Program-made: the position numbers and the translations under genes
Shown: piece after piece, positions 1-18,002 of the stretch
Numbering within the stretch: the first letter of the stretch is position 1
Layout of the letters: each line of letters opens with the position of its first letter
Notes under the pieces: generated by a model
Database searches by the model: none
What the model saw: only the letters and a program-made list of their open reading frames with translations
Told to the model about the DNA's origin: nothing
Source: Tenacibaculum gallaicum
Lineage (GTDB): Bacteria; Bacteroidota; Bacteroidia; Flavobacteriales; Flavobacteriaceae
Assembly (NCBI RefSeq): GCF_003387615.1
Contig: NZ_QUNS01000001.1
Span: forward strand, 288,241 to 352,240
Length of the DNA stretch: 64,000 nt
Direction: 5' to 3'

Positions 1-578
1 GCATTTCCAGACTCAGTAAAATCTAAGGCATTCCCTCCTGTCCTAATCCTTCCTCCTGATGTTATATTTTTTGCCACATTTACAGAATCATTACTTTGAA
101 TATATTCTGTATATAAGCTCGACCCAATGGTTTTAACACCTGTTATTGTTTGATTAGTATCAATCGTAACAAAATTTCCATTGGCTTCTCCTGATAGACT
201 ACTTAAATCTACTGTAAAAGTTGAGTTATCATCACGAGTAAATGTCGCTAACCCATTAGCATCTACAGTACCACTTACCAATCGTGCTAAATTAGTGTTA
301 TCCAAATAGGGTGTTAAATCAACTTGTGAGACACTTACTCCGTCTTTTAATAAATCAACCGTATTGGTTCCAGAAATTGGGGATAAGCTATATTCTGGAA
401 CTTGCTGTTCAGAAGCCACACTTACCTCTCCTGTTTCATCAATTACAAACCTTCGGTTTGCCTCTCCTTCGGGTTGTTTGGCATCAATATAACTATCAAT
501 TAAATCTGCATATTGTTGTTGTGTTGGCTTATCGCCTGTTTCAAAAAATTGTTTTAAGGTTTCTTTGTTTTGTTTCAT
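1..578 (-). CDS. Tail-fibre-like protein, copy 1 (3' end outside window)
   Basis: About 192 codons are visible from ATG 578; the C-terminus lies beyond position 1. The visible part aligns without a gap to the gene at 674-1957 (shift of 1379 bases, about 50 mismatches in 578 by hand count), so the two are tandem duplicates. The first 60 or so residues, beginning MKQNKETLKQFFETGDKPTQ, are shared by three consecutive genes and look like a common anchor. What follows is rich in Ser, Thr, Asn and Gly, with short beta-like repeats (for example NNTNLARLVSGTVDANG-type text), as in phage fibre shafts. The role as a receptor-binding or fibre protein is inferred from this layout and from the holin and cell-wall hydrolase next door. 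Divergence peaks around positions 241-420. Confidence 0.7.
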   Translation of the reverse strand, partial: MKQNKETLKQFFETGDKPTQQQYADLIDSYIDAKQPEGEANRRFVIDETGEVSVASEQQVPEYSLSPISGTNTVDLLKDGVSVSQVDLTPYLDNTNLARLVSGTVDANGLATFTRDDNSTFTVDLSSLSGEANGNFVTIDTNQTITGVKTIGSSLYTEYIQSNDSVNVAKNITSGGRIRTGGNALDFTESGN

Positions 579-615
579 TTTTTGTTCTTTTTTATCGTTT
601 TTATTTTTTTTTTTG

Positions 616-655
616 ATAAAAAAGAGCCGCTAAAAACTGTATTTTGCTAGTGGCT
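616..655 (-). terminator. Hairpin terminator between fibre genes 2 and 1
   Basis: Arms AGCCGCTA (625-632) and TAGTGGCT (648-655) pair with one G-U or A-C position. On the minus strand they are followed by a U-rich run (A run at 616-623). The same element recurs at 1996-2034 and 2720-2753, so it is part of each repeated cassette. It lies just after the stop of the 674-1957 gene. Confidence 0.65.
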
Positions 656-673
656 AGACTTTTGTTTTTTAAT

Positions 674-1957
674 TTATGAAGAGTATACGTTCGTCTGATA
701 AATACCCGAAACTTTTATAGAACCATCTGTAAATGAAACTGATGAGTAGTAATTCACCGGGTTTCCTACTGTCCCATTATCGTGTTTTAACACACGAAAT
801 TGATTGCTAGAAAACGGGCTAGTATATAACAGGTCGTAATTAACATTTCCCCCCGTAGAAATAATAATATTTGTGCTTTTTTCAACATCAAAAATGTTAA
901 AAATGTTAAAAGGAAATCCACCTATTATTAATTCTCCTGTTGGTGTTCCTGTTGTAGTTACATTATTAATACTATATGAAAAAGTTACACTATTTCCTAC
1001 TCTTGAATAAACACCTTGACCATTAAAAGCATAAGTTGCTCCTCCCCCTAGGTCAACTAAAGTAGGCGTAAATGTCCCTTCCTCATAAAAATTTGCTTTT
1101 TGCAAACCAGCATTCGTAGCATCAGCTAAAGGTAAAACTGCATCTGTTCCTGTGCTAGAAGCTACCGTTCTTGTGGCTGCATCATATGATAAATTTGTAG
1201 TTCCTCCGCTACCTGCTGTCGCATTAATTATAGGTTGTAGAGGGTCTGTAGCATCAATCGTAATGTTTGAACCTGCTTGTAATTGTGGGATATCATTTAA
1301 ATGAGCTATAATACCAGATTTACCTTGAAGTGTATGAACTGTGCTCCCTACAATATCTGCCTCAATGGTGGCTGAACCTCCATTTCCAGACTCAGTAAAA
1401 TCTAAGGCATTCCCTCCTGTCCTAATCCTTCCTCCTGATGTTATATTTTTTGCCACATTTACAGAATCATTACTTTGAATATATTCTGTATATAAACTCG
1501 ATTCAATGGTTTTAACACCTGTTATTGTTTGATTAGTATCAATCGTAACAAAATTTCCATTAACTCCTCCTGATAGACTACTTAAATCTACTGTAAAAGT
1601 TGAATTATCATCACGTGTAAAGGTTGCCAATCCATTAGCATCAACAGTACCTGATACTAATTGTGCTAAATTGGTATTGTCTAAATACGCTGTTAAATCA
1701 ATTTGTGAAACGCTTACTCCGCCTTTCAATAAATCAACGGTATTAGTTCCTGAAATAAGTGATAAGGTATATTCAGGTGCTTGTTGCTCAGAAGCCACAC
1801 TTACCTCTCCTGTTTCATCAATGACAAATCTGCGGTTGGCTTCTCCTTCGGGTTGTTTGGCATCGATATAGCTATCAATTAAATCGGCATATTGTTGTTG
1901 TGTAGGCTTGTCACCTGTTTCAAAAAATTGTTTTAAAGTTTCTTTGTTTTGTTTCAT
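674..1957 (-). CDS. Tail-fibre-like protein, copy 2
   Basis: Full-length 427-residue copy starting at ATG 1957. Residues 1 to about 60 match the other two fibre genes. Residues 60-270 are a Ser/Thr/Asn/Gly-rich region with fibre-like text such as ITGVKTIESSLYTEYIQS and QAGSNITIDATDPLQPIINA. From about residue 290 the segment EEGTFTPTLVDLGG followed by YSRVGNSVTFSYS resembles the C-terminal tip domain of many phage tail fibres, which commonly carry GT(F/W)TPTL and YTRVGN signatures. No signal peptide is seen, which suits a protein released by lysis or carried on a particle. Its target is unknown. No promoter is visible in front of it, so it probably depends on read-through from the lysis genes past a cassette hairpin. 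Confidence 0.75.
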   Translation of the reverse strand: MKQNKETLKQFFETGDKPTQQQYADLIDSYIDAKQPEGEANRRFVIDETGEVSVASEQQAPEYTLSLISGTNTVDLLKGGVSVSQIDLTAYLDNTNLAQLVSGTVDANGLATFTRDDNSTFTVDLSSLSGGVNGNFVTIDTNQTITGVKTIESSLYTEYIQSNDSVNVAKNITSGGRIRTGGNALDFTESGNGGSATIEADIVGSTVHTLQGKSGIIAHLNDIPQLQAGSNITIDATDPLQPIINATAGSGGTTNLSYDAATRTVASSTGTDAVLPLADATNAGLQKANFYEEGTFTPTLVDLGGGATYAFNGQGVYSRVGNSVTFSYSINNVTTTGTPTGELIIGGFPFNIFNIFDVEKSTNIIISTGGNVNYDLLYTSPFSSNQFRVLKHDNGTVGNPVNYYSSVSFTDGSIKVSGIYQTNVYSS

Positions 1958-1995
1958 TTTTTGTTCTTTTTTATCGTTTTTAAATTATTTTCCTG

Positions 1996-2034
1996 ATAAA
2001 AAAGAGCCGCTAAAAACTGGATTTGCTAGTGGCT
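1996..2034 (-). terminator. Hairpin terminator between fibre genes 3 and 2
   Basis: Arms AGCCGCTA (2005-2012) and TAGTGGCT (2027-2034) with a U-run on the minus strand (A run at about 1998-2003). It sits about 30 bases after the stop of the 2064-2681 gene and is nearly identical to the hairpin at 616-655. Confidence 0.65.
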
Positions 2035-2063
2035 ATACTTTTTGTTAATTATTTTTAATACAA

Positions 2064-2681
2064 CTAGCTTAATATCTCCTTTGATGTATATGAGAAGTTT
2101 ATGTATAACGTTTCATTATCCCAAACCCTATCTTTAATATTTACTCTTCCTAAATCATGTCTTACATAACAACCATAATTCTCATGAGCTTGTATATTAT
2201 AAACGGTTCCTGAGACAGATACACCAATGGGGAAACCATCAATGTTAGGTGCTATATATACTTCTCCATAAGTAGCTTGACCATCAGACGTTACACCTGA
2301 TAATATTATATCAACAAAAACACGGTCTCCAATAGTATAATACTCACCTTTTACTTGTTGCACTGAAAATGAAGATCCTGCAGCAAAAAAACTAGGTGTA
2401 AATACACCTTCTGTAATATTAACTCTAGGAGCTGCATTAATCACTGGTTGTAAAGGATCTGTTTCATCAATCATAATATTAGTTCCTGCTTGGTAAGTTG
2501 GAACTTGCTGTTCAGAAGCGACACTTACCTCTCCTAATTCATCAATTACAAACCTTCGGTTTGCTTCTCCTTCGGGTTGTTTGGCATCGATATAACTATC
2601 AATTAAATCGGAATACTGTTCTTGAGTAGGTTTATCTCCTGTTTCAAAAAATTGCTTTAATGTTTCTTTGTTTTGTTTCAT
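2064..2681 (-). CDS. Tail-fibre-like protein, copy 3 (short form)
   Basis: 205 residues from ATG 2681. The first 60 or so residues are almost identical to the other two fibre genes. It then jumps to a QAGTNIMIDETDPLQPVINA segment that corresponds to residues 230-250 of the 427-residue copy. It ends in a different tip beginning ITEGVFTPSFFAAG with GEYYTIGDRVFVDI. Relative to copy 2 it lacks most of the shaft and carries another tip. That mosaic suggests recombination between shared segments, with each gene offering a different binding tip. It is the first fibre gene after the holin. Confidence 0.75.
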   Translation of the reverse strand: MKQNKETLKQFFETGDKPTQEQYSDLIDSYIDAKQPEGEANRRFVIDELGEVSVASEQQVPTYQAGTNIMIDETDPLQPVINAAPRVNITEGVFTPSFFAAGSSFSVQQVKGEYYTIGDRVFVDIILSGVTSDGQATYGEVYIAPNIDGFPIGVSVSGTVYNIQAHENYGCYVRHDLGRVNIKDRVWDNETLYINFSYTSKEILS

Positions 2682-2719
2682 GTTTTGTTCTTTTTTATCG
2701 TTTTTAAATTTGTTTTTGA

Positions 2720-2753
2720 TAAAAAAGAGTCACTAAAAAGAGTGTTAGCGACT
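2720..2753 (-). terminator. Hairpin terminator after the holin gene
   Basis: Arms AGTCACTAA (2728-2736) and TTAGCGACT (2745-2753), one G-U pair, followed on the minus strand by a U-run (A run at 2721-2726). The arm overlaps the holin stop codon at 2752-2754. The sequence differs from the other two cassette hairpins but keeps the fold, which supports a real RNA structure. Confidence 0.65.
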
Positions 2754-3180
2754 AAACTTTTTCTTTGTCGTTGTTTTTTTGTTTTTCGGTTGTTTGCTCT
2801 AAGGTACCTTGCATACCCGCTTGTTTTAACAAACTGTGCAATGCTTTAAAGGGGTTTACTCCATAAATTTTGTTGTAGTTTTCTAAAATTGACTTAGTTT
2901 CGGTAATAGCTATAAATCCTGCTATTATTTTTAAAAAAGGAACTTCATTTACAATGTGTTTTTCTAAAAAATAAGCTGATATTATTACCAAGTTATAAAT
3001 AACAAACTTAGAAATGGTATGTCCAATTCGTTCGCTTTTTATAGGTATTTGTAATTTTAACGAGGCATAGGCTCCTGTAATAAAATCAACTACTATTAGT
3101 AACATCATGGTAGTTAACACTCCATTTAAAGGCGACAATAAAGCAAGCAACCAAAAAATGAAATGCGAAAATTTATCCAT
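2752..3180 (-). CDS. Phage-type holin (holin_4 / TcdE-like family)
   Basis: 142-residue membrane protein likely to permeabilise the inner membrane so that the neighbouring cell-wall hydrolase reaches peptidoglycan. Hydrophobic segments lie at about residues 7-35, 55-75 and 83-97. The text VVDFITGAYASLK (about 30-42) is typical of the holin_4_1 (TcdE/UtxA) family. The C-terminus (about 120-142) is a charged Lys/Glu/Asn tail, as in many holins. ATG 3180 overlaps the end of the hydrolase gene by eight bases, so the two are translationally coupled into a lysis cassette. Family assignment rests on motif and topology alone. Confidence 0.8.
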   Translation of the reverse strand: MDKFSHFIFWLLALLSPLNGVLTTMMLLIVVDFITGAYASLKLQIPIKSERIGHTISKFVIYNLVIISAYFLEKHIVNEVPFLKIIAGFIAITETKSILENYNKIYGVNPFKALHSLLKQAGMQGTLEQTTEKQKNNDKEKV

Positions 3181-3604
3181 TCTTTTTTAATTTTCTAAAG
3201 TCTAACACCCTTTTTTTAGGATATGCTTTAATGCTTACACTATTTCCTTGATTCCCTCCTAATAGATATACATATCGTTTGGTTTCTTTAATTAAAAAAC
3301 CAATATGTCCTTTCCAACTATTAGGATTTTCTCTCCATAAAACTACCACATCTCCTGGTTCTGGATTTGTAGTAGAGTCTCCTACCGACAACCAACTACG
3401 CGCTGTTAATTGGTTAGTGTGTTCATAACCGGCTTTTTTGGCTACCCAATTTGCAAAGGCACTGCACCAAGCGGTTTCATCTTTAAATTTTCCTCCATCA
3501 AAACCTAATGAAGTAAAATAGTTTATAATTTGAGGATGATCTTTTGAGCCTTTCACCTCTTTGACTCCGTATTGCGATAACGCTACTGATATTAAATTAT
3601 TCAT
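3173..3604 (-). CDS. TIGR02594-type cell-wall hydrolase (endolysin-like)
   Basis: 143 residues from ATG 3604. A longer reading from TTG 3640 is possible, but MNNLISVALSQYG matches the usual family start. The fold is NlpC/P60- or CHAP-like: Cys47 in ETAWCSAFANWV, His100 in WKGHIGFL and Asn118 in GGNQG form a plausible papain-like triad. TIGR02594 proteins are common in phages and act as presumed peptidoglycan endopeptidases or amidases. No signal peptide is present, so it would need the overlapping holin to reach the cell wall. It is the first gene behind promoter P2 (3762-3793), about 150 bases downstream of it. Confidence 0.8.
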   Translation of the reverse strand: MNNLISVALSQYGVKEVKGSKDHPQIINYFTSLGFDGGKFKDETAWCSAFANWVAKKAGYEHTNQLTARSWLSVGDSTTNPEPGDVVVLWRENPNSWKGHIGFLIKETKRYVYLLGGNQGNSVSIKAYPKKRVLDFRKLKKNG

Positions 3605-3741
3605 ACAAATGTTTAATTTTTTTAAAGCGCTTGCAGACAAAACTTGTAAGTTGTTGATTCTTTTTCTTTTTCTAGACCTGAAAGGGGTTAATCATAACTT
3701 TTTTTCGTTTCTGCTTACATTAAAGATTAATAAATAACAAT

Positions 3742-3759
3742 GAACTGTTAGAAAAGCAA
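3742..3759 (+). repeat. 18-base element shared with the P1 leader (inverted copy)
   Basis: GAACTGTTAGAAAAGCAA on the plus strand. The identical 18 bases occur on the minus strand at 11284-11301. Here the element lies at the 5' end of the P2 transcript, while the other copy lies inside the P1 transcript leader, so the two leaders would be complementary. Confidence 0.75.
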
Positions 3760-3761
3760 GA

Positions 3762-3793
3762 CAAATATATAACATATTACAATTAAAAACAAA
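3762..3793 (-). promoter_or_regulatory. P2: promoter with embedded operator for the lysis genes
   Basis: On the minus strand the order is TTTG (complement of 3790-3793), 20 bases, TATATTTG (complement of 3762-3769). This matches the Bacteroidota consensus TTTG-N19-21-TAnnTTTG. The spacer contains TGTAATATGTT (complement of 3771-3781). The block CAAATATAnAACATATTACA on the plus strand matches P1 (11468-11487) at 19 of 20 positions and in the same orientation, which marks a shared repressor site. Confidence 0.75.
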
Positions 3794-3849
3794 ACAAATT
3801 ACAAATATTTTGCATTATGTTTTAATTTAGAAATGTTCTCTGAAATTTT

Positions 3850-3887
3850 ATAAAAGAAAAACCAACTAAATTTAAATTTAGTTGGTT
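3850..3887 (-). terminator. Perfect palindrome terminator after the toxin-immunity unit
   Basis: A perfect 28-base palindrome at 3860-3887 (each arm AACCAACTAAATTT or its complement) is followed on the minus strand by a T-rich run (TTTTTCTTTTAT). It ends transcription from the immunity genes before P2 starts. Confidence 0.75.
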
Positions 3888-3970
3888 CCAATATTAATAC
3901 CTAATTTAGAAGGAAACTCACTAGATTACATTCTTTAAATAAAACTAATCTTCTATATTTTATATAAGTG

Positions 3971-4423
3971 CTAATAAAAAATTAACTCCTCAAAAGAATC
4001 ACAAATAAATTGTAATCCACTCCCATCCCAATAAAGTAGATAAACAACACCATAATCTTCACCTTTAGTAGAAATACAATATGTAGCTCCTCCAGAATTC
4101 TGTCCAAAAGGATACAAAAAATAGGTAACTCTTTATCATTAATCTGATAGTTATCTATAATTTCATTAACTGTCACTAAATCATCTATAGCATCCAATAC
4201 ATCTTTATCCTCATACTTTGAATCAATTGAGTAGAAAAAATCGAAATCAAACTCTAAATCTACTTTTTTAGAATAAAAAAGATTTATCTGGATAACCTCC
4301 ATTATGTTTTAAAATAAAATTCTTATAAGTGTCAGGTAGATTAAGATTAAACTCATTAAGAAAACTATTAAACTCTTCTAAACTAATTGATTTTTCACTT
4401 TCCGTTATTTTTATATCTTTCAT
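3971..4423 (-). pseudogene. Second SMI1/KNR4 immunity gene, broken by two frameshifts
   Basis: ATG 4423 begins MKDIKITESEKSISLEEF and continues through LPDTYKNFILKHNGGYPDKS to a stop just after the A6 tract at 4275-4280. The reading continues one frame over (SKKVDLEFDFDFFYSIDSKY through NDKELPIF). It returns to the first frame near the A6 tract at 4116-4121 as YPFGQNSGGATYCIS and SFEELIFY, ending at TAG 3973. The three pieces align in order to the intact immunity protein at 4429-4845 (LPETYKTHMLKFNGGAPDK, YDPGGNQICMDL, DSFEEFLNGL). The two shifts compensate, since 4423 and 3973 are in the same frame. Real decay, homopolymer phase variation and a sequencing error are all possible. Confidence 0.8.
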
Positions 4424-4428
4424 TTTAC

Positions 4429-4845
4429 TTAATAGTCATTATCTTCTGAAAGACCATTCAAAAACTCTTCAAAAGAATCCGCTAGAAGTTCAGGCTCAAT
4501 TTCTCCCATATCCATTGGCAAGTAATAAATTTTACCATAATTTTCTCCTTCGTTCAAATCCATACATATCTGATTTCCCCCTGGATCATAAGCAAAAGGA
4601 AGATAACCAATAGGTAAAAAATCTTTTAAGTCTTTAATGTTTTCTTCAAGAGTATCGTCTCCATTTTTTATTGGGTTAAAATGAGCTACATTTACGCCTT
4701 GAAAATAATCCTTATCTGGAGCCCCTCCGTTAAATTTCAACATATGTGTCTTATATGTTTCTGGTAAAGTGAATTTAAATTTTTCTTCAAAAGCTACTAA
4801 ATCTTCACTTATGATGTTTTTCTCTGTTAAAATAAAACTAATCAT
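4429..4845 (-). CDS. SMI1/KNR4-family immunity protein
   Basis: 138 residues, cytosolic, acidic. The family signatures are LPETYKTHMLKFNGGAPDK (about 28-46), FAYDPGGNQICMDLN (about 84-98) and DSFEEFLNGL near the C-terminus. SMI1/KNR4 proteins are the most common immunity partners of polymorphic nuclease toxins. Its ATG (4845-4843) overlaps the toxin stop TGA (4844-4842) in an ATGA junction, so toxin and antidote are translationally coupled. The expected role is to bind and block the WHH nuclease domain of the upstream toxin. A decayed paralogue follows five bases after its stop. Confidence 0.9.
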   Translation of the reverse strand: MISFILTEKNIISEDLVAFEEKFKFTLPETYKTHMLKFNGGAPDKDYFQGVNVAHFNPIKNGDDTLEENIKDLKDFLPIGYLPFAYDPGGNQICMDLNEGENYGKIYYLPMDMGEIEPELLADSFEEFLNGLSEDNDY

Positions 4846-7460
4846 GTTAAATATTTTGTTAATAGTATTGAAAATACAGATTGTCCTGCTGATCCAAAGT
4901 GTTTATACGTTGCTTTATGAGCCTTTCTTGAAACTAATTGCATTGTACACCCTAAATTTTCATCTAAATCATCTAAATGATGCCAGGTATAGTTTTTTAA
5001 AATAGCTTTTTGTTTTTTTCTATCAGTTATTCCCATTTTTTTGAATGATTCCTTAAAATCTAAATCCCTACTTCCTTTTATTTGGATTCTAACGATACTT
5101 TTATCATTATACAAATGAGAGGTACCTTTGAAGTCAGGAGATGTACCATTTTTACTCATAGGAATATCATATCCTTTTTTCTTTGCATTTTCAGGATTAT
5201 ACTTTGATGAACTAGCTCTGAGCCTTTTATTAACCTTTTCTATTATTTTTTTTCTCTCTTCTTTTGTCTTTTTTGTAAACTTAATAAAACTTTCAAAATC
5301 TTCTTTTGCAACTCTGAAAATTATGTTTCCAAACTCATCAAAAACATCAATATTAGTCTTAAGAAATACTTTTACATAATTTCCCTTAGCAATAATTGAT
5401 ATTTGCTTTTCATAAGCACCAATCTCCTCTAATTCATCCAAATACTTTTTAGCATCAGCCTCATTAAGTTTTTTTAGTTTCTCAGCAAGTTCTTCTACTT
5501 CTTTTTTTGTTCCCCTGAAAAGCTCTTTACCATCTTTTACTAAAGCATATAGATTTTCTCCAACAGGCACTGGAACACCACTTGCCAACACAGGTTGCTG
5601 TGGCACTTTTTTAATGGCTACATCAAGCTTTTCAAAAAGTGTATAAATATCATCCCTAAAAGTTCTGGTTGCCTTAGATAACCCTTCAAAAAACTCATCT
5701 AACCATTTTCTTAGTGTTTTAAGGTGTTTTGGAATGTTTTTTATAAAGTCTGCAATAATAGTACCTACCTTTACAAATGTATCGATACCAAATTGTACAG
5801 TATTCCCTAACGCTTTTGCTGCTTTTTTAGGTATTTCTGCTAACGCTTTATACGATCGTAACGTTTCTTTTAACGCTTTAGCAATCGTTCCCGTTCCTCC
5901 TGTTAAAAAGAAGGTAACTACCTCTGAAGCTACAAAACCAACAAAGAAACCAATATAATACCCTAAGGCTCCTGGATCTATTTTTACTTTTATATCTGAG
6001 GTTAAAAACCTAAATACAATTTTTACAGCATATGCTGGCATACTGGCTATAAAGCCAAAAATAGCTTTTAAGTTCTCTAGCGTAAACAGCGCTACAAAAC
6101 TATCCATAAGGTTTTCAAAACTCTCTGCAAACAAACTTAGGTAACTAGCTGGATTTTCAAAGAACTCAGTACTTTGTATGGCTGCGTTTAGCACATCAAA
6201 GAGCATTGCTAAAATATCAATAAACGATTTAACAAACTCTATAATACTGTTAATTAATCCTACTAAGAGTCCGTTGATGTACTCGTATAGGTTTAATAAA
6301 TGGTTTGATACGCTATCAAAAAAGTCTCGTAGCTGTGTAGGAATAGCATCCAATACCTCTATTACCTTACTAATATCAAATGGTATCAATTTTGCAAATC
6401 GTCTTTTTTTAAGCAGTAGTTTTGCTATTGAAGTGGCTTGTGTAGCTGCTGGTTGTATATAGGTTTTATAAACGTCGTTGCTAAACTTTTCTACATCAAA
6501 CAAATTATCTTCTCCTCGCAATTTGGGTAATAACGGATTGTATTTAGACCCAGATTCATCTTTAAAAGCCGTATTCCACCGTTCTTCTCCTAACTTTAAT
6601 TTGTTTACTTCTTTACTTGCGTTTTTTAACCCGCCTGATATATCTGTAAAAACATCTTTGGTAGACCATCGTATGATTCTTCCTCCTTTCAATAGCTTTT
6701 TGGTAACCAGCAAATAAAACACACTATCTTCCTCTGCTAATTCTTCTTTGATCATTTCAGAAAGGTCATTGGTTTGTACCTGAACTCCAAAAGCTTTTGC
6801 TACTTTAGAAAGAGTTAATCTATCTACCTCTGGTAAAGTTTTTACATTTTTCCCTTTATGAATTCTGAATACCGTACCAAAAGCATTCGTACCTCCACCA
6901 GATTCTATAAACACAACTATTTGATGTGTATTTACTTTGGTAATATTTTGGTATGCTCTTTCTAGTTTTGCTCCGTTATCTGAAACAAATACCGTAATAA
7001 ACGCATCGTATTCAATGCTGATTTCTTCTTTCTGTTTTGACTTTGAGCTGTTTTGAATCTCAAAAAAAACATCATCTTTAAGTATGTCTCCCCAAAGCTT
7101 TATATAAAACTTTTCGTTTATTTTATAATAGGAAATTTCTCCAAGACTAAAGTCATAATACGACTCTATAAACGCTGTGTTTTCTGGGCTTATATCGTAA
7201 TCAAAATCATTTAAAATTTCACCTACTGGTTGTGGATTTTCTTGCAAAAAAAAATCTCCATATTCTCCAGATAATGTACTATTGATATGTAAAAACCACT
7301 TATTGGGATTTTGTACTCCTTTTTCTATTTCTACATATATATTGGGGCTTGGAACTGTTGTTTCTTTTATTTTTTGTTGCTGAACATCTGAAAACACCAC
7401 CAATCCATTAAAATTGGTTTTGTGTTTAAAATGTTTGCTTCCATATTCATGAGCATGCAT
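4842..7460 (-). CDS. Polymorphic toxin with C-terminal WHH nuclease domain
   Basis: 872 residues from ATG 7460, no signal peptide. Residues 1-380 are a soluble region I do not recognise. Hydrophobic stretches lie at about 395-425, 462-485 and 495-523 (GALGYYIGFFVGFVASEVV), and a Lys/Glu-rich helical linker at 640-685. The last 110 residues carry the WHH-family HNH/endonuclease VII signature: GTSPDFKGTSHLY (about 770-783), RIQIKGSRDLDF, and NYTWHHLDDLDENLGCTMQLV's core with Trp826-His827-His828. The domain is known as a toxin tip in type VI, contact-dependent and other delivery systems and is expected to cleave DNA. The hydrophobic middle may serve membrane passage. The N-terminus shows no PAAR, VgrG, RHS or filamentous haemagglutinin signature, so the delivery route is unknown. 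Confidence 0.85.
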   Translation of the reverse strand: MHAHEYGSKHFKHKTNFNGLVVFSDVQQQKIKETTVPSPNIYVEIEKGVQNPNKWFLHINSTLSGEYGDFFLQENPQPVGEILNDFDYDISPENTAFIESYYDFSLGEISYYKINEKFYIKLWGDILKDDVFFEIQNSSKSKQKEEISIEYDAFITVFVSDNGAKLERAYQNITKVNTHQIVVFIESGGGTNAFGTVFRIHKGKNVKTLPEVDRLTLSKVAKAFGVQVQTNDLSEMIKEELAEEDSVFYLLVTKKLLKGGRIIRWSTKDVFTDISGGLKNASKEVNKLKLGEERWNTAFKDESGSKYNPLLPKLRGEDNLFDVEKFSNDVYKTYIQPAATQATSIAKLLLKKRRFAKLIPFDISKVIEVLDAIPTQLRDFFDSVSNHLLNLYEYINGLLVGLINSIIEFVKSFIDILAMLFDVLNAAIQSTEFFENPASYLSLFAESFENLMDSFVALFTLENLKAIFGFIASMPAYAVKIVFRFLTSDIKVKIDPGALGYYIGFFVGFVASEVVTFFLTGGTGTIAKALKETLRSYKALAEIPKKAAKALGNTVQFGIDTFVKVGTIIADFIKNIPKHLKTLRKWLDEFFEGLSKATRTFRDDIYTLFEKLDVAIKKVPQQPVLASGVPVPVGENLYALVKDGKELFRGTKKEVEELAEKLKKLNEADAKKYLDELEEIGAYEKQISIIAKGNYVKVFLKTNIDVFDEFGNIIFRVAKEDFESFIKFTKKTKEERKKIIEKVNKRLRASSSKYNPENAKKKGYDIPMSKNGTSPDFKGTSHLYNDKSIVRIQIKGSRDLDFKESFKKMGITDRKKQKAILKNYTWHHLDDLDENLGCTMQLVSRKAHKATYKHFGSAGQSVFSILLTKYLT

Positions 7461-7693: not shown

Positions 7694-10600
7694 TTATGCT
7701 ACATTGTTGGTATCGCCTACAATATCGTAATCTACACCATCTGGTCCATCTCCTATCTTATAGGTACTTACATCAAATAAGCCTTGACCTTCACAGTCTG
7801 GATTACACGGCAAACCTCCTTCATTTAATACTACAGAATCTGCTTGTAACACAGTTAACGTTGTTGGCACACGGGTTTCCCAAGTGCCTTCCACTTCACC
7901 TTCAATGGTTTGCATTTCTTCTGCAACAGAAACATATAAATCGTCATCCATATCGGTAACCATTCCTTGACCATTCCAAATTTCACCAGTTTTCATATAC
8001 CAGTTTACAGCTTCTTCAAAACCTGGACGTACAGGTACTACTGATCTTGCCATACCACTTTGTAAAAAGGCTTGGAAAACAGGGTCGCTACCTTCGTTGT
8101 GCTCAAAATTAGCATCCCAATTACCTTCTGCTCCATAGAAATAAGGATAAAATGTGTACGCCATAATTTCCCAATCAAATGCTTGTTCAAAAAACTTAAC
8201 TGTTTCAGCATGCTTTTGAAATTTAGACGTTCTCGCTACATGCTTAGCATCCGCTTCTTTACCATTCTCTTTATAATTATCCTGAGCGGTAACAACATCA
8301 AAAGGTTTTGTCATTAAGTCGATAGCAATACGCTTTAACTCACGCTTTTCGATACTACGATTGATTTGAGAACTCAATTCTTTTTTCTTTTCATTTTGCT
8401 CGTTCTCTGTTGCCTGAGACTTTACAAAGTCATTGTATGCTAAGACCCTTTCATTATATGCATTTATTATAGCTTTATAAGCCTCGTTTTGCCATTTTCT
8501 CAATGCTTCGTTAGTCCTATTACACTTTACAACAACATTAAAATTTCCTGTTAATGAATCAAAGCTTGAGGCAGAAACAGCTAATAAGTTTTTTGCTCCT
8601 GAAAAACTAGTACCTGATTTAAACGAGAATTCTCCATCTCCTTTTGCTTCATTTTCTTGAATAGTATTACCCACTGCTATACGAAGTCTTCCTCCTATTT
8701 TACCTGAATCATGGGAATATAAATTACCTACCACCTCAAAAGATTCTGTAATATAATTTTCTAAAATTTCAATCTCATCAGCAACAACACTTCCTTCTTG
8801 ACCTTTTAAATCTTTAAAATCTAATTTATAAGATTTTGTTATAATAATCTCTTCCTCAGGATAATCAAAATGCTCAACTCCGTATCTAGATAAAACATTA
8901 GCATAATTATATTCATTTAAGCTAGAGGAAGTTATTATTTTCTCTGTCAATTCACTCGGATGTATCGGTTTTTTAGGAATAATTAACCCTTCAATAGTTT
9001 TTTCACTTCCTTCTCCATTTTTCAAATATGATTCAATATAAAACTTAGCTGGTTCTGGTAACGCAAATTCATACATTAAGCGCTTACCATAATTTATCAA
9101 CTTATTCTTATAAATCTTATCTACCCAACGATACACTCCTGTGACATGCTTATCTCCTTTACGGTTATCAAATCCATGAGTATTATTCTCTTCATACTCT
9201 CGCAATATACGAGACGTACGTTTGGTACTAATCTTCTTTACCACTCGTTCTAAGGCTCTTTCTGTTACCTCTTGCGCATACGTTTGTGCTTGTAGGTTTG
9301 AATCTGAAGAAGAATTAGAAGATGAAGTATTAAAGCTTGTTCCTAAACTTAAACCAAAACCAGAATAACTAGCATTAGCCCCAAAACTAGTAGCATTATC
9401 ACTATTTACAATAAACGACGCTTCGTTTTGCATTTCATTACGTTCTGTTGAGGTAGTGTCTGTTAGGTTTTCTACTTCTTTTTCTGTTGTTGTTTCCGTA
9501 GTTGTTTCTGAAACTCTTAAATCTCTAGTAGAACGCTCTTTATATTCGCGTGCCATGATATTTTCTATGTGTGACACTTCTCCAGGCACATAGCAATACA
9601 CTTCTTGTTCTACTCGTCTAAAATCTGCTACTCCTAATTGAGATATTCCATAAAGAACACCTTTTCCATCAGCACTTGTACCCCCTGAGTCATTGCCACT
9701 AACTATACATTGACCAACAAACTTGTTAGCAATTTCATAGTATCCATCATCAAACTTAACCTGAAACATAATGTTTTTAAACTCTAACGACACTCCGTTA
9801 CTTAAAACAAAACTACCGTCCAAACCAAATACAGGTCCTGAAATTAACTGCTCTAAATTTTCTGGAAATAATTCAATTCGTAACAATGTATCATCAAAAC
9901 TAGCAGGACTGCTTTTAAATGAAGTACCACTATACGGTACTTGAGCATCAATATCATCTAAAGTATAGTTTGCTTCTGTTACTCTTACATTAGTAGAATC
10001 TTCAACCTTTAAAAACATAATAATTTTTGATCCTTTCCCCATTTGACCAAAAACATCTCCCGAATAAGAGTACAATGGTGTACTTTTACTAAGGTTATAA
10101 TTTAGAGTACCTCCTTGAATAGAAACAGCTCTTACTTTTTCTGGAGTGTTTTCTAAAATTTTCTGATTCTCTTCTTTTATTTTTTGTCTAAGAACCGTTT
10201 TAGCCTCATAAAAATTATCATATAATTTGAGTCCTTCTGAATTTAATAAATCTTTAGTCTCTTCTGAATACTGAAAAGTAGTTGTCGTTGTACCATCCGC
10301 AGCTCTACTAATCTCTTCTGCTTTTTCAAATTCAAACTTAGGCAATTCTAAATCTGGATAAATTTCTAATCTTTTTTCAAATCCTGATTTAGCGTCTACA
10401 ATTGTTTGAATCGTTGGTTGAGCCGCATTTTTTATATCTTCTACAGCTAATTCATGAGCTTGTAATGCTTCTTTATATCGTACCTGCTCACTTTTATTAT
10501 AAACATACTCAGCTTTTTCAATTTCCTTTAAACCTAGCTCATATTGTTGTAAACGTGTTTTAGCCATCTCAACCTGTAAACTAGATGTCAAATACTCTGA

Positions 10601-11230
10601 TGAACTAGGGCTTATGTTTGTAGCTCCTCCTTCAAATTGCTGATCTGAGATAACCACATCTTTAGGCACAATAACACTTGCATTCGCTCTACGTACGAAT
10701 TCTTTTTCATTTTCTTCTGTAAAAACAATTTCCCCTTCTGTTTCTTGTGAAAAACTGTTAGTAAATACATTAAATGCTTTTAAAAACTTATTAGCTACCA
10801 ACATTTGAATCAGTCCTTCTCGAACAATAGTAGACTCCTTATTAATAGTTTGATGAAATAAGTTTTCCCATAATACTAACTCTTCATTAACAGTAAGTTC
10901 TTGTGCTGCAGATAAATTAGCATCAATACCAGCATACGATAATACTGTCTTATTGCGCACTAACCATCCTGAAAACTGATACAATGCTTCGTGTAAATTT
11001 TTAATTTCTACCCTACTCGCTATTGGTGTAAAATTCGTGCTGTAAGCCCCTTTTAAGGCTGTTTTTCTTTCTTCATCTGTAGTAGCTCCTTGTATTGCTT
11101 GAAAAGCTAAACTTTCTGCTTTTTTTTCTTCTGGAAATGAAACAAATCCAACTTCTTTGTCTTCAATTAATTGTGGACTACGTAATGTTACAAACCTAAA
11201 TAGGTTTGATTTGATTGGTTTTTTACTCAT
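7694..11230 (-). CDS. Large protein of unknown function, first gene of the toxin operon
   Basis: 1178 residues from ATG 11230, no signal peptide or membrane segment. I do not recognise a named domain. The start SNLFRFVTLRSPQLIEDK is followed by helical, Glu/Lys-rich text to about residue 370. A beta-rich middle (about 380-550) follows, then a Thr/Ser/Glu low-complexity stretch near 566-600 (SETTTETTTEKEVENL) and an Asn/Ser-rich patch near 640. A conserved-looking segment lies at about 693-735 (GVYRWVDKIYKNKLINYGKR, MYEFALPEPAKFYIE). The C-terminal 300 residues are aromatic-rich. Position directly behind P1 and upstream of the nuclease toxin suggests a structural, delivery or second effector protein; that is inference from context only. 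Confidence 0.7.
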   Translation of the reverse strand: MSKKPIKSNLFRFVTLRSPQLIEDKEVGFVSFPEEKKAESLAFQAIQGATTDEERKTALKGAYSTNFTPIASRVEIKNLHEALYQFSGWLVRNKTVLSYAGIDANLSAAQELTVNEELVLWENLFHQTINKESTIVREGLIQMLVANKFLKAFNVFTNSFSQETEGEIVFTEENEKEFVRRANASVIVPKDVVISDQQFEGGATNISPSSSEYLTSSLQVEMAKTRLQQYELGLKEIEKAEYVYNKSEQVRYKEALQAHELAVEDIKNAAQPTIQTIVDAKSGFEKRLEIYPDLELPKFEFEKAEEISRAADGTTTTTFQYSEETKDLLNSEGLKLYDNFYEAKTVLRQKIKEENQKILENTPEKVRAVSIQGGTLNYNLSKSTPLYSYSGDVFGQMGKGSKIIMFLKVEDSTNVRVTEANYTLDDIDAQVPYSGTSFKSSPASFDDTLLRIELFPENLEQLISGPVFGLDGSFVLSNGVSLEFKNIMFQVKFDDGYYEIANKFVGQCIVSGNDSGGTSADGKGVLYGISQLGVADFRRVEQEVYCYVPGEVSHIENIMAREYKERSTRDLRVSETTTETTTEKEVENLTDTTSTERNEMQNEASFIVNSDNATSFGANASYSGFGLSLGTSFNTSSSNSSSDSNLQAQTYAQEVTERALERVVKKISTKRTSRILREYEENNTHGFDNRKGDKHVTGVYRWVDKIYKNKLINYGKRLMYEFALPEPAKFYIESYLKNGEGSEKTIEGLIIPKKPIHPSELTEKIITSSSLNEYNYANVLSRYGVEHFDYPEEEIIITKSYKLDFKDLKGQEGSVVADEIEILENYITESFEVVGNLYSHDSGKIGGRLRIAVGNTIQENEAKGDGEFSFKSGTSFSGAKNLLAVSASSFDSLTGNFNVVVKCNRTNEALRKWQNEAYKAIINAYNERVLAYNDFVKSQATENEQNEKKKELSSQINRSIEKRELKRIAIDLMTKPFDVVTAQDNYKENGKEADAKHVARTSKFQKHAETVKFFEQAFDWEIMAYTFYPYFYGAEGNWDANFEHNEGSDPVFQAFLQSGMARSVVPVRPGFEEAVNWYMKTGEIWNGQGMVTDMDDDLYVSVAEEMQTIEGEVEGTWETRVPTTLTVLQADSVVLNEGGLPCNPDCEGQGLFDVSTYKIGDGPDGVDYDIVGDTNNVA

Positions 11231-11283
11231 TTTTATAAAATTTAATTAATTTTTTAATCAAGCTCAAAAAGAGCCCTGTTTAA

Positions 11284-11301
11284 TTGCTTTTCTAACAGTT
11301 C
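11284..11301 (-). repeat. 18-base element shared with the P2 region (inverted copy)
   Basis: On the minus strand this reads GAACTGTTAGAAAAGCAA, exactly the plus-strand sequence at 3742-3759. It lies in the 5' leader of the leftward operon, about 54 bases before the ATG at 11230. Confidence 0.75.
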
Positions 11302-11467
11302 TTTTTTCTTGATTTTTGGTTTTATTCAAAAAAATGTTTGAATAAACGAGTATAGATTTCAAAAAAGTGAAGAAAATCAAGTTGAAATCTTAAAAACACA
11401 ATCGCTAAAACCACACAAATGTTTGATTATTACAATTTTTTTGTATATTAGCAATTCATTAACGATG

Positions 11468-11499
11468 CAAATATAAAACATATTACACATTTAAACAAA
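11468..11499 (-). promoter_or_regulatory. P1: promoter with embedded operator for the toxin operon
   Basis: On the minus strand the order is TTTG (complement of 11496-11499), exactly 20 bases, TATATTTG (complement of 11468-11475). The spacer holds TGTAATATGTT (complement of 11477-11487). Repressor bound there would occlude RNA polymerase. The arrangement is the same as P2 down to the spacing. An inverted copy of the 10-base core lies at 11519-11528 in front of the divergent repressor gene. Confidence 0.75.
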
Positions 11500-11511
11500 C
11501 AAAAGTTTAAT

Positions 11512-11528
11512 TATTTTTGTAATATGTA
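11512..11528 (+). promoter_or_regulatory. Repressor promoter -7 box and operator half
   Basis: TATTTTTG at 11512-11519 fits TAnnTTTG; no good -33 TTTG is seen. TGTAATATGT (11519-11528) directly follows and is the inverted match of ACATATTACA at 11478-11487. A further AACAT-AAA-ATGTT inverted repeat (11531-11543) abuts the ATG at 11544. This layout fits autoregulation. Confidence 0.6.
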
Positions 11529-11543
11529 AAAACATAAAATGTT

Positions 11544-12344
11544 ATGGGAATTTCCGAAAAAATAGCAGCAATTAGAGATGCTTTTAACTTAAATAACTTT
11601 TCTTTTTCAAAAAAAATAGGTGTTACTGGCACCACTATAGATAGCATTATTAATGGGAGGCCTCAATCTAACGGTAGTAGAAAAAAAACAAAACCTGGTT
11701 ACGATGTTCTTACTTCTATTATTAATGAATTTAACATTAATCCTGACTATCTCTTTGGAAAAAGTGATATCATGCTAAAAACCAAACCTACTAATATTCA
11801 AACATATTCTGGAGTACCCCAGGTTGTTTCTGTGAATTCTTCAGGAAATGAAAATGTAGTTTATGTTCCTATACAAGCAAGAGCTGGTTATTTAAATGGT
11901 TACGGAGATTCAAATTACATAGAACAACTTCCTTCTTTTAACATGCCACATCTTAACAATGGCACTTTTCGTTGTTTTGAAGTACAAGGAAATTCTATGG
12001 TACGTACTTTTTTTGATGGGGATCTAGTTTTTGGAAAGTATGTAGAGGGCTTACGCGATATTAAAGACGGTCGTGTATATATAATTGTAAGCAAAAACGA
12101 TGGTATTGTTTTAAAGCGTGTAATTAATAGAATAGAAGAAAGAGGAAAGCTTATTTTAAAAAGCGATAATAAAGATGGTAATTACCCTACTTATACCATA
12201 AATGCAGAAGAAATTATGGAGGTTTGGTATGTAACTATGTTTGCGTCCAAACAAATGCCCGAGCCAATTGATGTTTACGACAGATTACACGATTTAGAAA
12301 GTAAAGTTGTGGAACTTGAAGAACAAATTAGTAGCAAAAACTAA
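11544..12344 (+). CDS. CI/LexA-type self-cleaving repressor (HTH plus peptidase S24)
   Basis: 266 residues. Residues 5-70 form an HTH_3/XRE-like DNA-binding domain (FSFSKKIGVTGTTIDSIING). The C-terminal half is a peptidase S24 domain with all parts needed for self-cleavage: Ala114-Gly115 in QARAGYLNG, Ser151 in VQGNSMVRTFFDGD and Lys191 in GIVLKRVINR. The spacing is close to lambda CI (111/112, 149, 192). A short coiled-coil tail (245-262) follows. It probably represses P1, P2 and itself through the ACATATTACA element and is inactivated by RecA after DNA damage. That induction is family knowledge and not shown by the sequence. The start is the first ATG after the operator. Confidence 0.9.
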   Translation: MGISEKIAAIRDAFNLNNFSFSKKIGVTGTTIDSIINGRPQSNGSRKKTKPGYDVLTSIINEFNINPDYLFGKSDIMLKTKPTNIQTYSGVPQVVSVNSSGNENVVYVPIQARAGYLNGYGDSNYIEQLPSFNMPHLNNGTFRCFEVQGNSMVRTFFDGDLVFGKYVEGLRDIKDGRVYIIVSKNDGIVLKRVINRIEERGKLILKSDNKDGNYPTYTINAEEIMEVWYVTMFASKQMPEPIDVYDRLHDLESKVVELEEQISSKN

Positions 12345-12351
12345 TTATTCT

Positions 12352-12972
12352 ATGCTTAAAAAGCTGCTTTTTTTAGTTCTTTTATTCCCTTTTTACACAT
12401 CCGCCCAATCCAACTGGCAACAGTTTAAAAAACTACAAGGAGCTCAAAAAACATGGGTACTACTCCACCCTTTTAAAGCTAAAAAAGCTTTTATTGTTTC
12501 ACGTGAAGCATCAAGAGTAAATGACTCTCTAAGAGTTTCTCCCCTACTAGATAGCGACCATGCAGGTGGACAAGTAGATGCATTTCGTCATGCTTTTTGG
12601 ATGACTTTATTACAACAAGAAATTGGAGAAAACGCAGCACGTTCACTTGGTAAAGCCCATGAAAAAGATAACCACAAAACATATAAAGAGAAAAAACTAG
12701 AAGACGGTGTTATTCCTGATAAGATTTCTTCTGAAATGGATTTATTTAACAACAAAGTTGGTTTAACACTTTCCAAAAAAGGTGGTAACCTTCCTAAAAA
12801 TGGATTGATTTACAGAGTAATCAACGTCATTCATCAAGGAAAATTAAAAATTATTAAAAAAGATAAAAACGGTAATTTTCTGACTTGTAATAATGAGGTT
12901 ATTTCAAAAAAATCATTAGTCGGAAAATGGGAAAACAACAAATGCTTAATTAATTCAAATTACAAAAGGTAA
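12352..12972 (+). CDS. Secreted DUF6973-like protein
   Basis: 206 residues from ATG 12352. A signal peptide (MLKKLLFLVLLFPFYTSAQ) probably leads to export. The body carries DSDHAGGQVDAFRHAFWMTL (residues 67-86), a downstream GKAHEKDNH (about 100-108) and EMDLFNN (128-134). This set of His and Asp/Asn motifs is what I associate with the DUF6973 domain, whose activity is not known. It starts seven bases after the repressor stop and ends directly against the hydrolase start, so it is co-transcribed with both. Whether it belongs to the toxin locus or to the host operon is open. Confidence 0.65.
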   Translation: MLKKLLFLVLLFPFYTSAQSNWQQFKKLQGAQKTWVLLHPFKAKKAFIVSREASRVNDSLRVSPLLDSDHAGGQVDAFRHAFWMTLLQQEIGENAARSLGKAHEKDNHKTYKEKKLEDGVIPDKISSEMDLFNNKVGLTLSKKGGNLPKNGLIYRVINVIHQGKLKIIKKDKNGNFLTCNNEVISKKSLVGKWENNKCLINSNYKR

Positions 12973-13659
12973 ATGCAAAAAGTATATGTAATTTCAGGTA
13001 CCATGTGTACGGTAGATTTATGGCAATTTGTTTTTTCCAAACTGAAAAACATACTTCCAGTTCACATTGATATTACTCTTGCAACTTCTTTTGAGGAAAT
13101 TAATCAAATCGTTCTCAATCATATTGAAGAACCTGCCACCATTATTGGTTTTTCTTTAGGTGGATTTTCTGCTATGAATTTTGCTATTCATTATCCTGAA
13201 AAAGTAAAAAAACTAGTCGTCGTAGCTGCCAATACTAATGGGCTGAATGACTCAGAGATTCAGTTACGAAAAAGTACGATTGCTTTTTTAGAAAAGCATA
13301 GCTATAAGGGAATTTCACAAGCTAGAATTCAACAATTTTTACACCCAGATAATCACAGTAATTCCAAAATTATTTCTATTATAAAAAAAATGGATTCTGA
13401 TTTAGGGAAAGATGTACTATTTCGTCAATTAAAAGCAACTTCAACTCGGTTAGATATTTCACAAAAAGTTTTAAAGCTAGACATTCCTATATTTTTTATT
13501 GCTGCTGAAAATGATGCACTCATCAATCCAAAAAAACTAAAAGAGTTTGCCAATAAAACTGAAAAAGGAATATATGTAATGATTAAGAATTGTGGTCATA
13601 TGATTCCTCTTGAAAAACCTGAAGAATTGGCATCAATACTGAACTTAACCATCAACTAA
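12973..13659 (+). CDS. Alpha/beta-fold hydrolase
   Basis: 228 residues, cytosolic. The nucleophile elbow GFSLGG places Ser61; Asp181 in AENDALI and His209 in NCGHMIPLEKPEE complete the triad. The oxyanion region near VISGTMCTVDLWQFV (5-20) is slightly unusual, with Gly-Thr-Met-Cys in place of the common HGxxG. The cap is small. The substrate cannot be told. ATG follows the upstream stop with no gap, and the next gene starts nine bases after its stop, so all are in one operon. Confidence 0.85.
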   Translation: MQKVYVISGTMCTVDLWQFVFSKLKNILPVHIDITLATSFEEINQIVLNHIEEPATIIGFSLGGFSAMNFAIHYPEKVKKLVVVAANTNGLNDSEIQLRKSTIAFLEKHSYKGISQARIQQFLHPDNHSNSKIISIIKKMDSDLGKDVLFRQLKATSTRLDISQKVLKLDIPIFFIAAENDALINPKKLKEFANKTEKGIYVMIKNCGHMIPLEKPEELASILNLTIN

Positions 13660-13668
13660 CAATATAAA

Positions 13669-14253
13669 ATGTCAACTAGTCTTAACAATGTTATCAGTTA
13701 CAGCCCTAATTTTTTAACTAAAAAAGAAGCTACAAAACTATTTCAGCAATTAACAAGCTTCTCTGAACTCACAAATATGATGGAAATGAAACTTCCATCC
13801 GATGAGGTAATTAAATATAATTTTGGTAAACTAATGTTTGTTGATTCTGATTTGATCAAGAAAAATGTTTTTCAAAAATCAGCCTGGGGAAACGTTATGA
13901 AATGGCCAGAATATATGCTACCGATAAAAAAACAAATTCAAGAGCATACTGGGTTAGAGTTTAAAACTTGTGTCTGTATTTATTATCCTGATGGAAACTC
14001 CGGTGTAAACTACCATTCAGATGAAATGGCTTTTGGAGATACGGACGTTATTCCTTCAATTAGTTTAGGAGAAGAACGCATGTTTTATCTTCGAGAAAAT
14101 AAAACAATGATTGAAAGCAAAATACTTCTAGAGCACGGAAGTTTGTTAGTTATGGAAGATGGTTGTCAAGAATACTACGAACATAGCCTGCCTGAAAACC
14201 CTAAATATTTAAACCCGAGAGTTAATTTAACTTTTAGAAAATATGGTTTTTAA
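13669..14253 (+). CDS. AlkB-like 2-oxoglutarate/Fe(II) dioxygenase
   Basis: 194 residues. The iron-binding motif is visible as YHSDEMAFGD (His-x-Asp at about 116-118) and the distal His in YEHSLPEN. NPRVNLTFRKYG at the C-terminus supplies the two Arg residues typical of AlkB enzymes, which bind 2-oxoglutarate and substrate. AlkB proteins reverse alkyl damage on DNA or RNA bases. It ends the operon started by the self-cleaving repressor, so a damage-linked function is plausible for the unit. The substrate remains unassigned. Confidence 0.8.
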   Translation: MSTSLNNVISYSPNFLTKKEATKLFQQLTSFSELTNMMEMKLPSDEVIKYNFGKLMFVDSDLIKKNVFQKSAWGNVMKWPEYMLPIKKQIQEHTGLEFKTCVCIYYPDGNSGVNYHSDEMAFGDTDVIPSISLGEERMFYLRENKTMIESKILLEHGSLLVMEDGCQEYYEHSLPENPKYLNPRVNLTFRKYGF

Positions 14254-14375
14254 AATCCAACTAACTTAGAAAACTATAGAATTATTACGTTTTTATCCTT
14301 AAATATTAAGAAAAATAGCTTTTAACAACTACTATTTAAACCCATTCTAAATATTTAAGAAAACAATTCGTAAAG

Positions 14376-14407
14376 TTTGTTCAAGTACTGTGTTCCTCTT
14401 AAATTTG
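14376..14407 (+). promoter_or_regulatory. Promoter of the succinate dehydrogenase operon
   Basis: TTTG (14376-14379), exactly 20 bases, TAAATTTG (14400-14407). This is a full match to the Bacteroidota consensus, 28 bases before the ATG at 14436. Confidence 0.7.
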
Positions 14408-14435
14408 TGCTATTATTTAATCAACAAACAAAATA

Positions 14436-15113: not shown

Positions 15114-15125
15114 TACGCAACAAGT

Positions 15126-17141: not shown

Positions 17142-17150
17142 GAGAAAATT

Positions 17151-17897: not shown

Positions 17898-17916
17898 AAT
17901 AGATCTTATATAACAT

Positions 17917-17947
17917 AAAAAACGAAGCACTTGCTTCGTTTTTTTTA
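17917..17947 (+). terminator. Terminator of the sdhCAB operon
   Basis: Arms AACGAAGC (17921-17928) and GCTTCGTT (17933-17940) with loop ACTT and a T7-8 run. Confidence 0.85.
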
Positions 17948-18002
17948 TGCTCGATATTTACACACTCATGCCTTTTTTTAATTTAAAAAAATAAAAAGAA
18001 TA

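What the first reader, a model, noticed from the sequence alone, without database searches (positions are those of the whole stretch)
1..2760. Tandem fibre cassettes with a fixed head, variable tip and repeated hairpin
Three consecutive genes share the first 60 residues and the intergenic hairpin block (616-655, 1996-2034, 2720-2753), while shafts and tips differ. Copies 1 and 2 align without a gap for 578 bases. Copy 3 lacks most of the shaft and joins the head directly to a late segment with another tip. The fixed segments are long enough for homologous recombination, so this may be a reservoir for switching receptor specificity. The hairpins may grade expression along the array.
Basis: partly seen in the sequence, partly recalled or inferred. 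Interest (0 to 1): 0.62.

Follow-up and report, generated by a model that had tools for sequence, protein, structure and literature searches.

The report
Swappable fibre genes in toxin island
Three neighbouring genes of a marine bacterium make phage-like attachment fibres with the same base but different tips, inside a gene island that also carries a toxin, its antidote and cell-bursting genes; related species have exchanged the tips, which probably sets which bacteria are reached.

Summary
Three minus-strand genes share a head and a repeated hairpin and differ in shaft and tip. Copy 1 is cut because the window starts just after a 98-N assembly gap; its tip lies left of the window and the array ends there, so it has three genes.

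They are phage-type receptor-binding fibres: a tip model matches a phage tailspike head, and relatives lie in Tenacibaculum phages. They are not in a recognisable phage or tailocin but in a ~14 kb chromosomal island: S24 repressor, 1178-aa unknown protein (P1178), nuclease toxin, SUKH immunity, endolysin, holin, fibres, spanin-like gene. Full-length P1178 with fibre heads occurs in 24 of 166 genomes of the genus; one relative shows the clean empty site. Main arrays hold 1-7 fibres.

Tip replacement between species is clear (tips 99.5% identical where P1178 is 81%; heads and shafts 97-98% identical ending abruptly at different tips). Switching within a strain is not shown; no invertase was found. 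The hairpins are array-specific and terminator-like; graded expression is untested.

Best reading: interchangeable targeting fibres of a lysis-released bacteriocin-like system. The carrier is unknown, and 5 of 24 carriers show no such toxin.

The parts
3..578 (-). fibre gene copy 1 (last in transcription), N-terminal 192 aa only; the rest lies left of the window beyond a 98-N gap
618..655 (-). terminator-like hairpin between copies 2 and 1
674..1957 (-). fibre gene copy 2, 427 aa: head, shaft, receptor-binding-type tip
1998..2034 (-). terminator-like hairpin between copies 3 and 2
2064..2681 (-). fibre gene copy 3 (first in transcription), 205 aa; short shaft; last 420 nt 95-98% identical in four related species
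2721..2753 (-). terminator-like hairpin overlapping the holin stop codon, before the first fibre
2752..3180 (-). holin, PF05105
3173..3640 (-). endolysin-like protein, TIGR02594 / CHAP
4429..4845 (-). SUKH (SMI1/KNR4) immunity protein
4842..7460 (-). 872-aa polymorphic toxin: conserved N-terminal 680 aa, WHH nuclease C-terminus
7694..11230 (-). 1178-aa protein of unknown family (called P1178 here), marker of the island
11544..12344 (+). CI/S24-type repressor, divergent from the operon

Best explanation
The three genes are the targeting part of a repressor-controlled, lysis-released, bacteriocin-like island. The common head anchors each fibre to a shared carrier; the tip binds a surface receptor of target bacteria, most likely other Tenacibaculum or Flavobacteriaceae. 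On induction the cell would make P1178, toxin cargo with immunity (where present), lysis proteins and all fibres from one operon, then burst and release them. New target ranges arise when recombination in the nearly fixed hairpin-leader-head-shaft segments replaces a tip or adds a cassette. Shown: anatomy, association, tip fold, tip replacement between species, hairpin conservation. Inferred: one operon, release by lysis, killing, head docking, simultaneous display.
For: Tip model matches the Dettilon phage tailspike C-terminal domain (Z 12.7, rmsd 2.5, 121 aligned, 26% identity); other viral receptor-binding heads follow, down to the R1 pyocin fibre (Z 5.2). Viral-model ranks 1 and 3 are Tenacibaculum phages, rank 2 has no name (the alignment folded held a Gundel_1 row). 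Copies 1 and 2 match Tenacibaculum phage Gundel_1 at 38-39% over about 190-200 aa. Island order recurs in the genus (output partly cut); 24 of 24 genomes with full-length P1178 have the head against 6 of the other 142. Toxins: 16 from 15 genomes keep the N-terminus (23% in one, 45-96% in 15), while the C-terminus aligns in 1 of 16. Tip exchange: G250_f2/G209_f3 tips 99.5% identical, P1178 81%; OWN_f2 and G234_f3 97% for 882 nt and G346_f3 and G202_f4 98% for 768 nt, then different tips. Empty site in G213: island replaced by 84 bp. Purifying selection: holin dN 0-0.003, endolysin 0.014-0.015, dS 0.06-0.23.
Against: No sheath, tube or baseplate gene was recognised in the island, so the carrier is unknown. 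P1178 has no family and its most conserved part, about 513-750, is not modelled. A toxin-like ORF of the window's type was recognised in 19 of 24 carriers, weakly (22-24%) in G288, G314 and G348; G202, G346, G222, G233 and G269 show none, and in the first four only 1.0-2.4 kb separate P1178 from the endolysin. So fibres, P1178 and lysis genes occur without this toxin. Conversely L047 has P1178, toxin and lysis genes but no head-type fibre between holin and spanin-like gene. Toxin activity, lysis and killing are untested. Carriers are enriched for contractile sheaths encoded elsewhere, which points to a rival.
Confidence: 0.55

Rival explanations
1. The fibres arm a contractile particle (eCIS or tailocin) encoded elsewhere in the genome, and the island supplies fibres, lysis and perhaps cargo in trans.
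For: An eCIS-type sheath occurs in 21 of 24 island carriers against 17 of 142 others (Fisher 2e-13, not corrected for kinship). The window genome has such a cluster on contig 8. In one IMG/VR contig a P1178 homologue, head-type fibres (by eye) and lysis genes lie with a DUF2586 tail sheath and baseplate-hub genes. Head-type ORFs lie within 20 kb of a DUF2586 sheath on the same contig in seven genomes. In the island itself the endolysin's best PHROG match is a part of a baseplate hub/tail lysozyme family (6e-30), and the toxin's middle weakly matches tape-measure families (8e-5).
Against: Three carriers (G233, G242, G349) gave no eCIS-type sheath match and 18 of 24 no DUF2586 match. In the window genome no head was found at the eCIS locus; the 3 found are in the array. 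The association may follow kinship.
Confidence: 0.25
2. A switching reservoir: recombination between cassettes changes the expressed tip within a strain.
For: Long near-identical head and shaft segments; heads resemble those of the same genome more than chance: 43 of 74 nearest heads are in the same genome, shuffles mean 2.6, maximum 9.
Against: No recombinase among the nine proteins scanned and no inverted repeat over 30 nt in window 1-6000; each cassette has its own start and leader; no strain-level data.
Confidence: 0.1
3. A decaying prophage or tailocin remnant without present function.
For: Phage-type repressor, holin, endolysin and fibres without recognised head or tail genes.
Against: Similar order and open frames in many species; purifying selection on lysis genes and on the first fibre (dN 0.013-0.022, dS 0.15-0.16).
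Confidence: 0.07

Closest known systems
R-type tailocin tail-fibre loci, e.g. carotovoricin of Pectobacterium (PMC13195805; abstract and the section on recombination read)
   Same: Fixed fibre N-terminus, variable C-terminus, fibre exchange by homologous recombination across a genus
   Different: No recognised tail genes in the island and no invertase found; several complete fibre genes in tandem with repeated hairpins; a polymorphic nuclease toxin and immunity gene beside them
Tailocin clusters with multiple tail fibre genes in Pseudomonas (PMC10598620; passages read)
   Same: Several fibre genes, suggested to broaden the target range
   Different: Those clusters encode the contractile particle; here the carrier is not identified
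Colicins / S-type (modular) bacteriocins (PMC6240691 passages read; otherwise recalled)
   Same: Nuclease toxin, immunity gene, lysis function
   Different: Colicins carry receptor binding and toxin on one chain (recalled); here phage-type endolysin and holin, separate fibres, and the large unknown P1178
Tail fibres of Tenacibaculum phages Gundel_1, JQ and PTm1/PTm5
   Same: Part of copy 2 is 36-44% identical over the aligned stretch (51-201 aa)
   Different: Genes of true phages, annotated as hypothetical; the match covers shaft end and tip, not the head

Membership tests
phage-type receptor-binding fibre | tip with a viral receptor-binding fold | tested here: met
   6f7d Z 12.7; BFVD ranks 1 and 3 are Tenacibaculum phages
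phage-type receptor-binding fibre | tail-fibre family match by sequence | tested here: met
   phrog_22284 tail fiber, 2e-10, residues 64-134 of copy 2; copy 3 only 0.035; head 1-35 matches a Flavobacterium phage structural protein
phage-type receptor-binding fibre | binds a cell-surface receptor | not testable with these tools
   needs binding assays
R-type tailocin | sheath, tube and baseplate genes in the cluster | tested here: not met
   nine island proteins scanned, none identified as sheath, tube or baseplate; but P1178 is unidentified, the endolysin matches a baseplate-hub lysozyme family and the toxin weakly a tape-measure family
R-type tailocin | lysis cassette and fibre genes | tested here: met
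   holin, endolysin, fibres; the spanin-like gene matches no family and is named from position and by eye
polymorphic toxin system | conserved N-terminus, exchanged C-terminal toxin domain, adjacent immunity gene | tested here: met
colicin-like bacteriocin | receptor binding, translocation and toxin domains on one chain | tested here: inconclusive
   the toxin N-terminal 680 aa match no curated family above cut-off
invertible (shufflon-type) fibre switch | site-specific invertase and inverted repeats | tested here: not met
   fibre repeats are direct; inverted repeats in window 1-6000 are at most 30 nt; no recombinase among the nine proteins scanned
intrinsic terminator | stem-loop followed by a T run | tested here: met
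   present in all 71 kept sequences, but the scan itself required at least 7 of 8 pairs and CTTTT. Within that, 34 double-change cells against 8.7 in shuffles. In this genome two of four fold little better than shuffles (z -0.9, -1.3) and two well (z -4.3, -4.1)
intrinsic terminator | ends transcription | not testable with these tools
   needs RNA 3'-end mapping

The most novel reading that the evidence does not exclude
A tail-less, fibre-guided delivery system: P1178, whose conserved core could be a membrane-active or assembly segment, is the carrier; it displays several interchangeable phage-type fibres through a common head and delivers a separate, optional polymorphic toxin, all released by a dedicated phage lysis cassette, with both warhead and tips exchanged by recombination.
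Probability: 0.22. Interest if true: 0.85.

Novelty: new variant of a known kind. Interest (0 to 1): 0.6.

Why it matters
It points to a chromosomal weapon-like island, of which I saw no description in the listings searched, in a marine genus that includes fish pathogens (recalled). It shows fibre tips evolving as exchangeable cassettes outside a recognisable phage or tailocin. If P1178 is the carrier, it would be a new kind of targeted delivery. If the fibres serve an eCIS, it would show a mobile fibre supply for contractile injection systems. Either is testable by deletions and particle purification.

Tried and rejected
P1178 identification: Pfam, PHROGs and NCBIfam, PDB by sequence and PDB by fold gave nothing usable. 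The model is weak (mean pLDDT 61), and the second look is filled by one jelly-roll at 791-906 (best Z 9.6, to proteins of many kinds), so I claim no fold. No P1178 match among 50,697 phage records; one locus among viral contigs. A PDB sequence search with copy 2 gave nothing.

Hairpins as recombination sites of integron type: considered, not pursued; the T run and position favour terminators. My first pattern was too strict (2 hits) and was replaced (79 sense, 21 antisense hits). Of the 79, 8 were left out by eye as unlike the family, misframed or away from fibres (71 kept). Because the scan demanded a stem of at least 7 of 8 pairs, the 92.9% paired cells are largely by selection, and the covariation count leans the same way; the placement before fibres is the more independent evidence.

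Heads: 74 of 87 were used (13 without the IDSY motif or with N left out); the script gave 43 or 44 of 74 depending on ties.

G309, whose eCIS sheath is 99% identical to that of the window genome, was to serve as an empty site, but its contig starts at the island edge, so it is not used.

Literature: searches; I saw titles and abstract starts of capped listings, and read parts of three papers only. None of what I saw describes this island. Subscription papers and preprints were not searched.

Full report
What was checked. The window is bases 288,241-352,240 of contig 1 of an unnamed 3.42-Mb genome. Its nearest named relative among those found by the 1178-aa protein is Tenacibaculum larymnensis, 85%; very near records may be left out of that search. 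The three genes of the finding are real and lie on the minus strand, with long direct repeats between them. The window starts just after a 98-N run whose two sides share 97 identical bases. Left of the gap come its tip, a last hairpin, a 199-aa spanin-like gene and then other chromosomal genes. The array has three fibres.

Surroundings. Upstream in transcription lie a holin (PF05105), an endolysin-like protein (TIGR02594/CHAP), a SUKH immunity protein, an 872-aa protein ending in a WHH nuclease domain, an 1178-aa protein of unknown family (P1178) and a divergent S24 repressor. In genome G213 the whole stretch from the spanin-like gene to the repressor (about 14.2 kb) is absent, with 84 bp in its place between matching flanks. 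The island is thus gained or lost as a unit.

Distribution. P1178 gives a match in 29 of 166 genomes of the genus; I count 24 as full length (best piece 50% identity or more) and leave out five distant or partial ones (G131, G275, G277, G294, G338). The fibre head is found in 30 of 166 genomes, including all 24. In a family-wide sample the counts are 11 of 199 for P1178 and 5 of 199 for the head. At least two arrangements exist: A, endolysin-holin-fibres-spanin-like, as in the window; B, fibres between toxin and endolysin, closely packed (for example G241, G201, G349). G269 has its fibres upstream of the repressor, and in G356 they lie about 75 kb from P1178. Fibres per main array run from 1 (G233) to 7 (G345).

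Toxin. An ORF of more than 600 aa like the window's toxin was recognised in 19 of the 24 carriers, in three of them (G288, G314, G348) only at 22-24% identity. In 16 toxins from 15 genomes chosen for a match from the N-terminus on, the N-terminal 680 aa are kept and the C-terminus aligns in one. G202, G346, G222, G233 and G269 show no such toxin; in the first four only 1.0-2.4 kb lie between P1178 and the endolysin. The toxin therefore looks like optional cargo, and P1178, lysis genes and fibres like the more constant set.

Fixed head, variable tip. Within arrays, 111 pairs of fibres (secondary arrays and arrays without P1178 included) average 89% identity over the first 30 residues (lowest 63%); 9 pairs have tips alignable over 90 residues or more, and none exceeds 47.3%. 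Heads are also similar between species, so the head alone shows only constraint.

Tip exchange. 25 cross-genome tip pairs align over at least 300 of 420 nt. The strongest case is G250_f2 and G209_f3: tips 99.5% identical while P1178 of the two genomes is 81% over the aligned 2.8 kb, and mid-shaft windows fall to 47-75%. The next four are the first fibre of G209 against the window clade (93-95% against 81-82%). In the other direction, OWN_f2 (window copy 2) follows G234_f3 at 97% for 882 nt and then carries a different tip (DNA windows 35-65%), while the tip of G234_f3 has its counterpart in OWN_f3 (window copy 1, 94%). G346_f3 and G202_f4 agree at 98% for 768 nt and then differ. The close pair OWN-G226 shares 1 of G226's 4 tips, and G235-G265 none of 3. 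The first fibre is the stable one in the window clade. Against a simple picture: 12 of the 25 pairs have tips at most 2 points above, or below, the P1178 value, as vertical descent would give, and the P1178 figures cover aligned parts only.

Tip function. An AlphaFold model of the last 200 residues of copy 2 (mean pLDDT 68; 80-91 in its best blocks) matches the C-terminal domain of the Dettilon phage tailspike (Z 12.7; next a Noumeavirus protein at 10.4, then reovirus attachment heads at 7-8.5). Viral-model ranks 1 and 3 are Tenacibaculum phages; one row of the folded alignment came from such a phage. By sequence, 17 phage records match copy 2, of which 6 are Tenacibaculum phage records including duplicates. 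A separate viral contig has the same tip on a fibre upstream of lysis genes (named by eye). Receptors on the same host genus are likely, by inference.

Hairpins. A scan of 29 loci (475 kb) finds the hairpin within 260 nt upstream of 61 of 87 fibre genes, against 1 of 25 endolysin, 0 of 21 holin, 0 of 23 P1178, 0 of 23 SUKH and 1 of 23 toxin-N matches; antisense hits number 21. 10 of 18 spanin-like genes also have one, mostly the hairpin that closes the array. In 71 retained sequences (56 distinct) 92.9% of cells pair and 5 of 8 pairs show changes on both sides, but the scan itself required at least 7 of 8 pairs. Two columns pair poorly (20 and 12 of 56 unpaired). In the window genome, hairpin 2721-2753 and the closing one fold well (z -4.3, -4.1), the two inner ones weakly (z -0.9, -1.3). 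The degenerate 3' half is found 4 times in the genome, all here. The arrays of arrangement B lack the hairpin, so it is not needed for multi-fibre arrays as such.

Carrier. No sheath, tube or baseplate gene was identified in the island, though the endolysin's best PHROG match is a baseplate-hub lysozyme family and the toxin's middle weakly matches tape-measure families. An eCIS-type sheath is present in 21 of 24 carriers against 17 of 142 others, and a DUF2586 sheath in 6 of 24 against 11 of 142. These figures ignore kinship. One IMG/VR contig carries a P1178 homologue (40%) together with fibres, lysis genes, a DUF2586 sheath and baseplate-hub genes; a further protein there matches tail and major-head families about equally. 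The fibres may thus have come from, or still serve, a contractile particle. L047 has the P1178-toxin-lysis core without head-type fibres in the matching place.

Verdict. Within-strain switching and graded expression are open. The larger finding is the island that the array belongs to.

Noticed in passing
L103 12822-18242 and L104 1-19771 (contig 8 of the window genome): A separate eCIS-type cluster (sheath of 653 aa, tube-like, baseplate-like and large further proteins). Names are from memory of such clusters, except for the weak PF04984 match.
   Followed up: partly
L069 (G356) 8622-18110 in the reading direction of the operon: Downstream of the toxin lie several orphan C-terminal pieces that share toxin residues about 547-680 and then diverge, between SUKH-type immunity genes: the toxin has a cassette array of its own.
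   Followed up: no
window 3982-4302 and 4268-4423: Beside the intact immunity gene, a second SUKH-like gene appears to be broken into two frames.
   Followed up: no
L059 8765-14717: In Pseudoflavitalea a distant P1178-like protein (32% over part) is followed by a 922-aa protein that resembles arginine deiminases (motif recalled, not tested); no fibre or lysis gene was noticed nearby by eye.
   Followed up: no
L063 2151-5330: G226 (T. larymnensis) has a second group of three head-bearing genes about 180 kb from the island.
   Followed up: no
window 2752-3640 and L005 6301-6900, against G234, G250, G226: Synonymous divergence from the three nearest relatives is lower in holin and endolysin (dS 0.06-0.23) than in the spanin-like gene (0.45-0.50), so lysis genes may have been exchanged too.
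   Followed up: no
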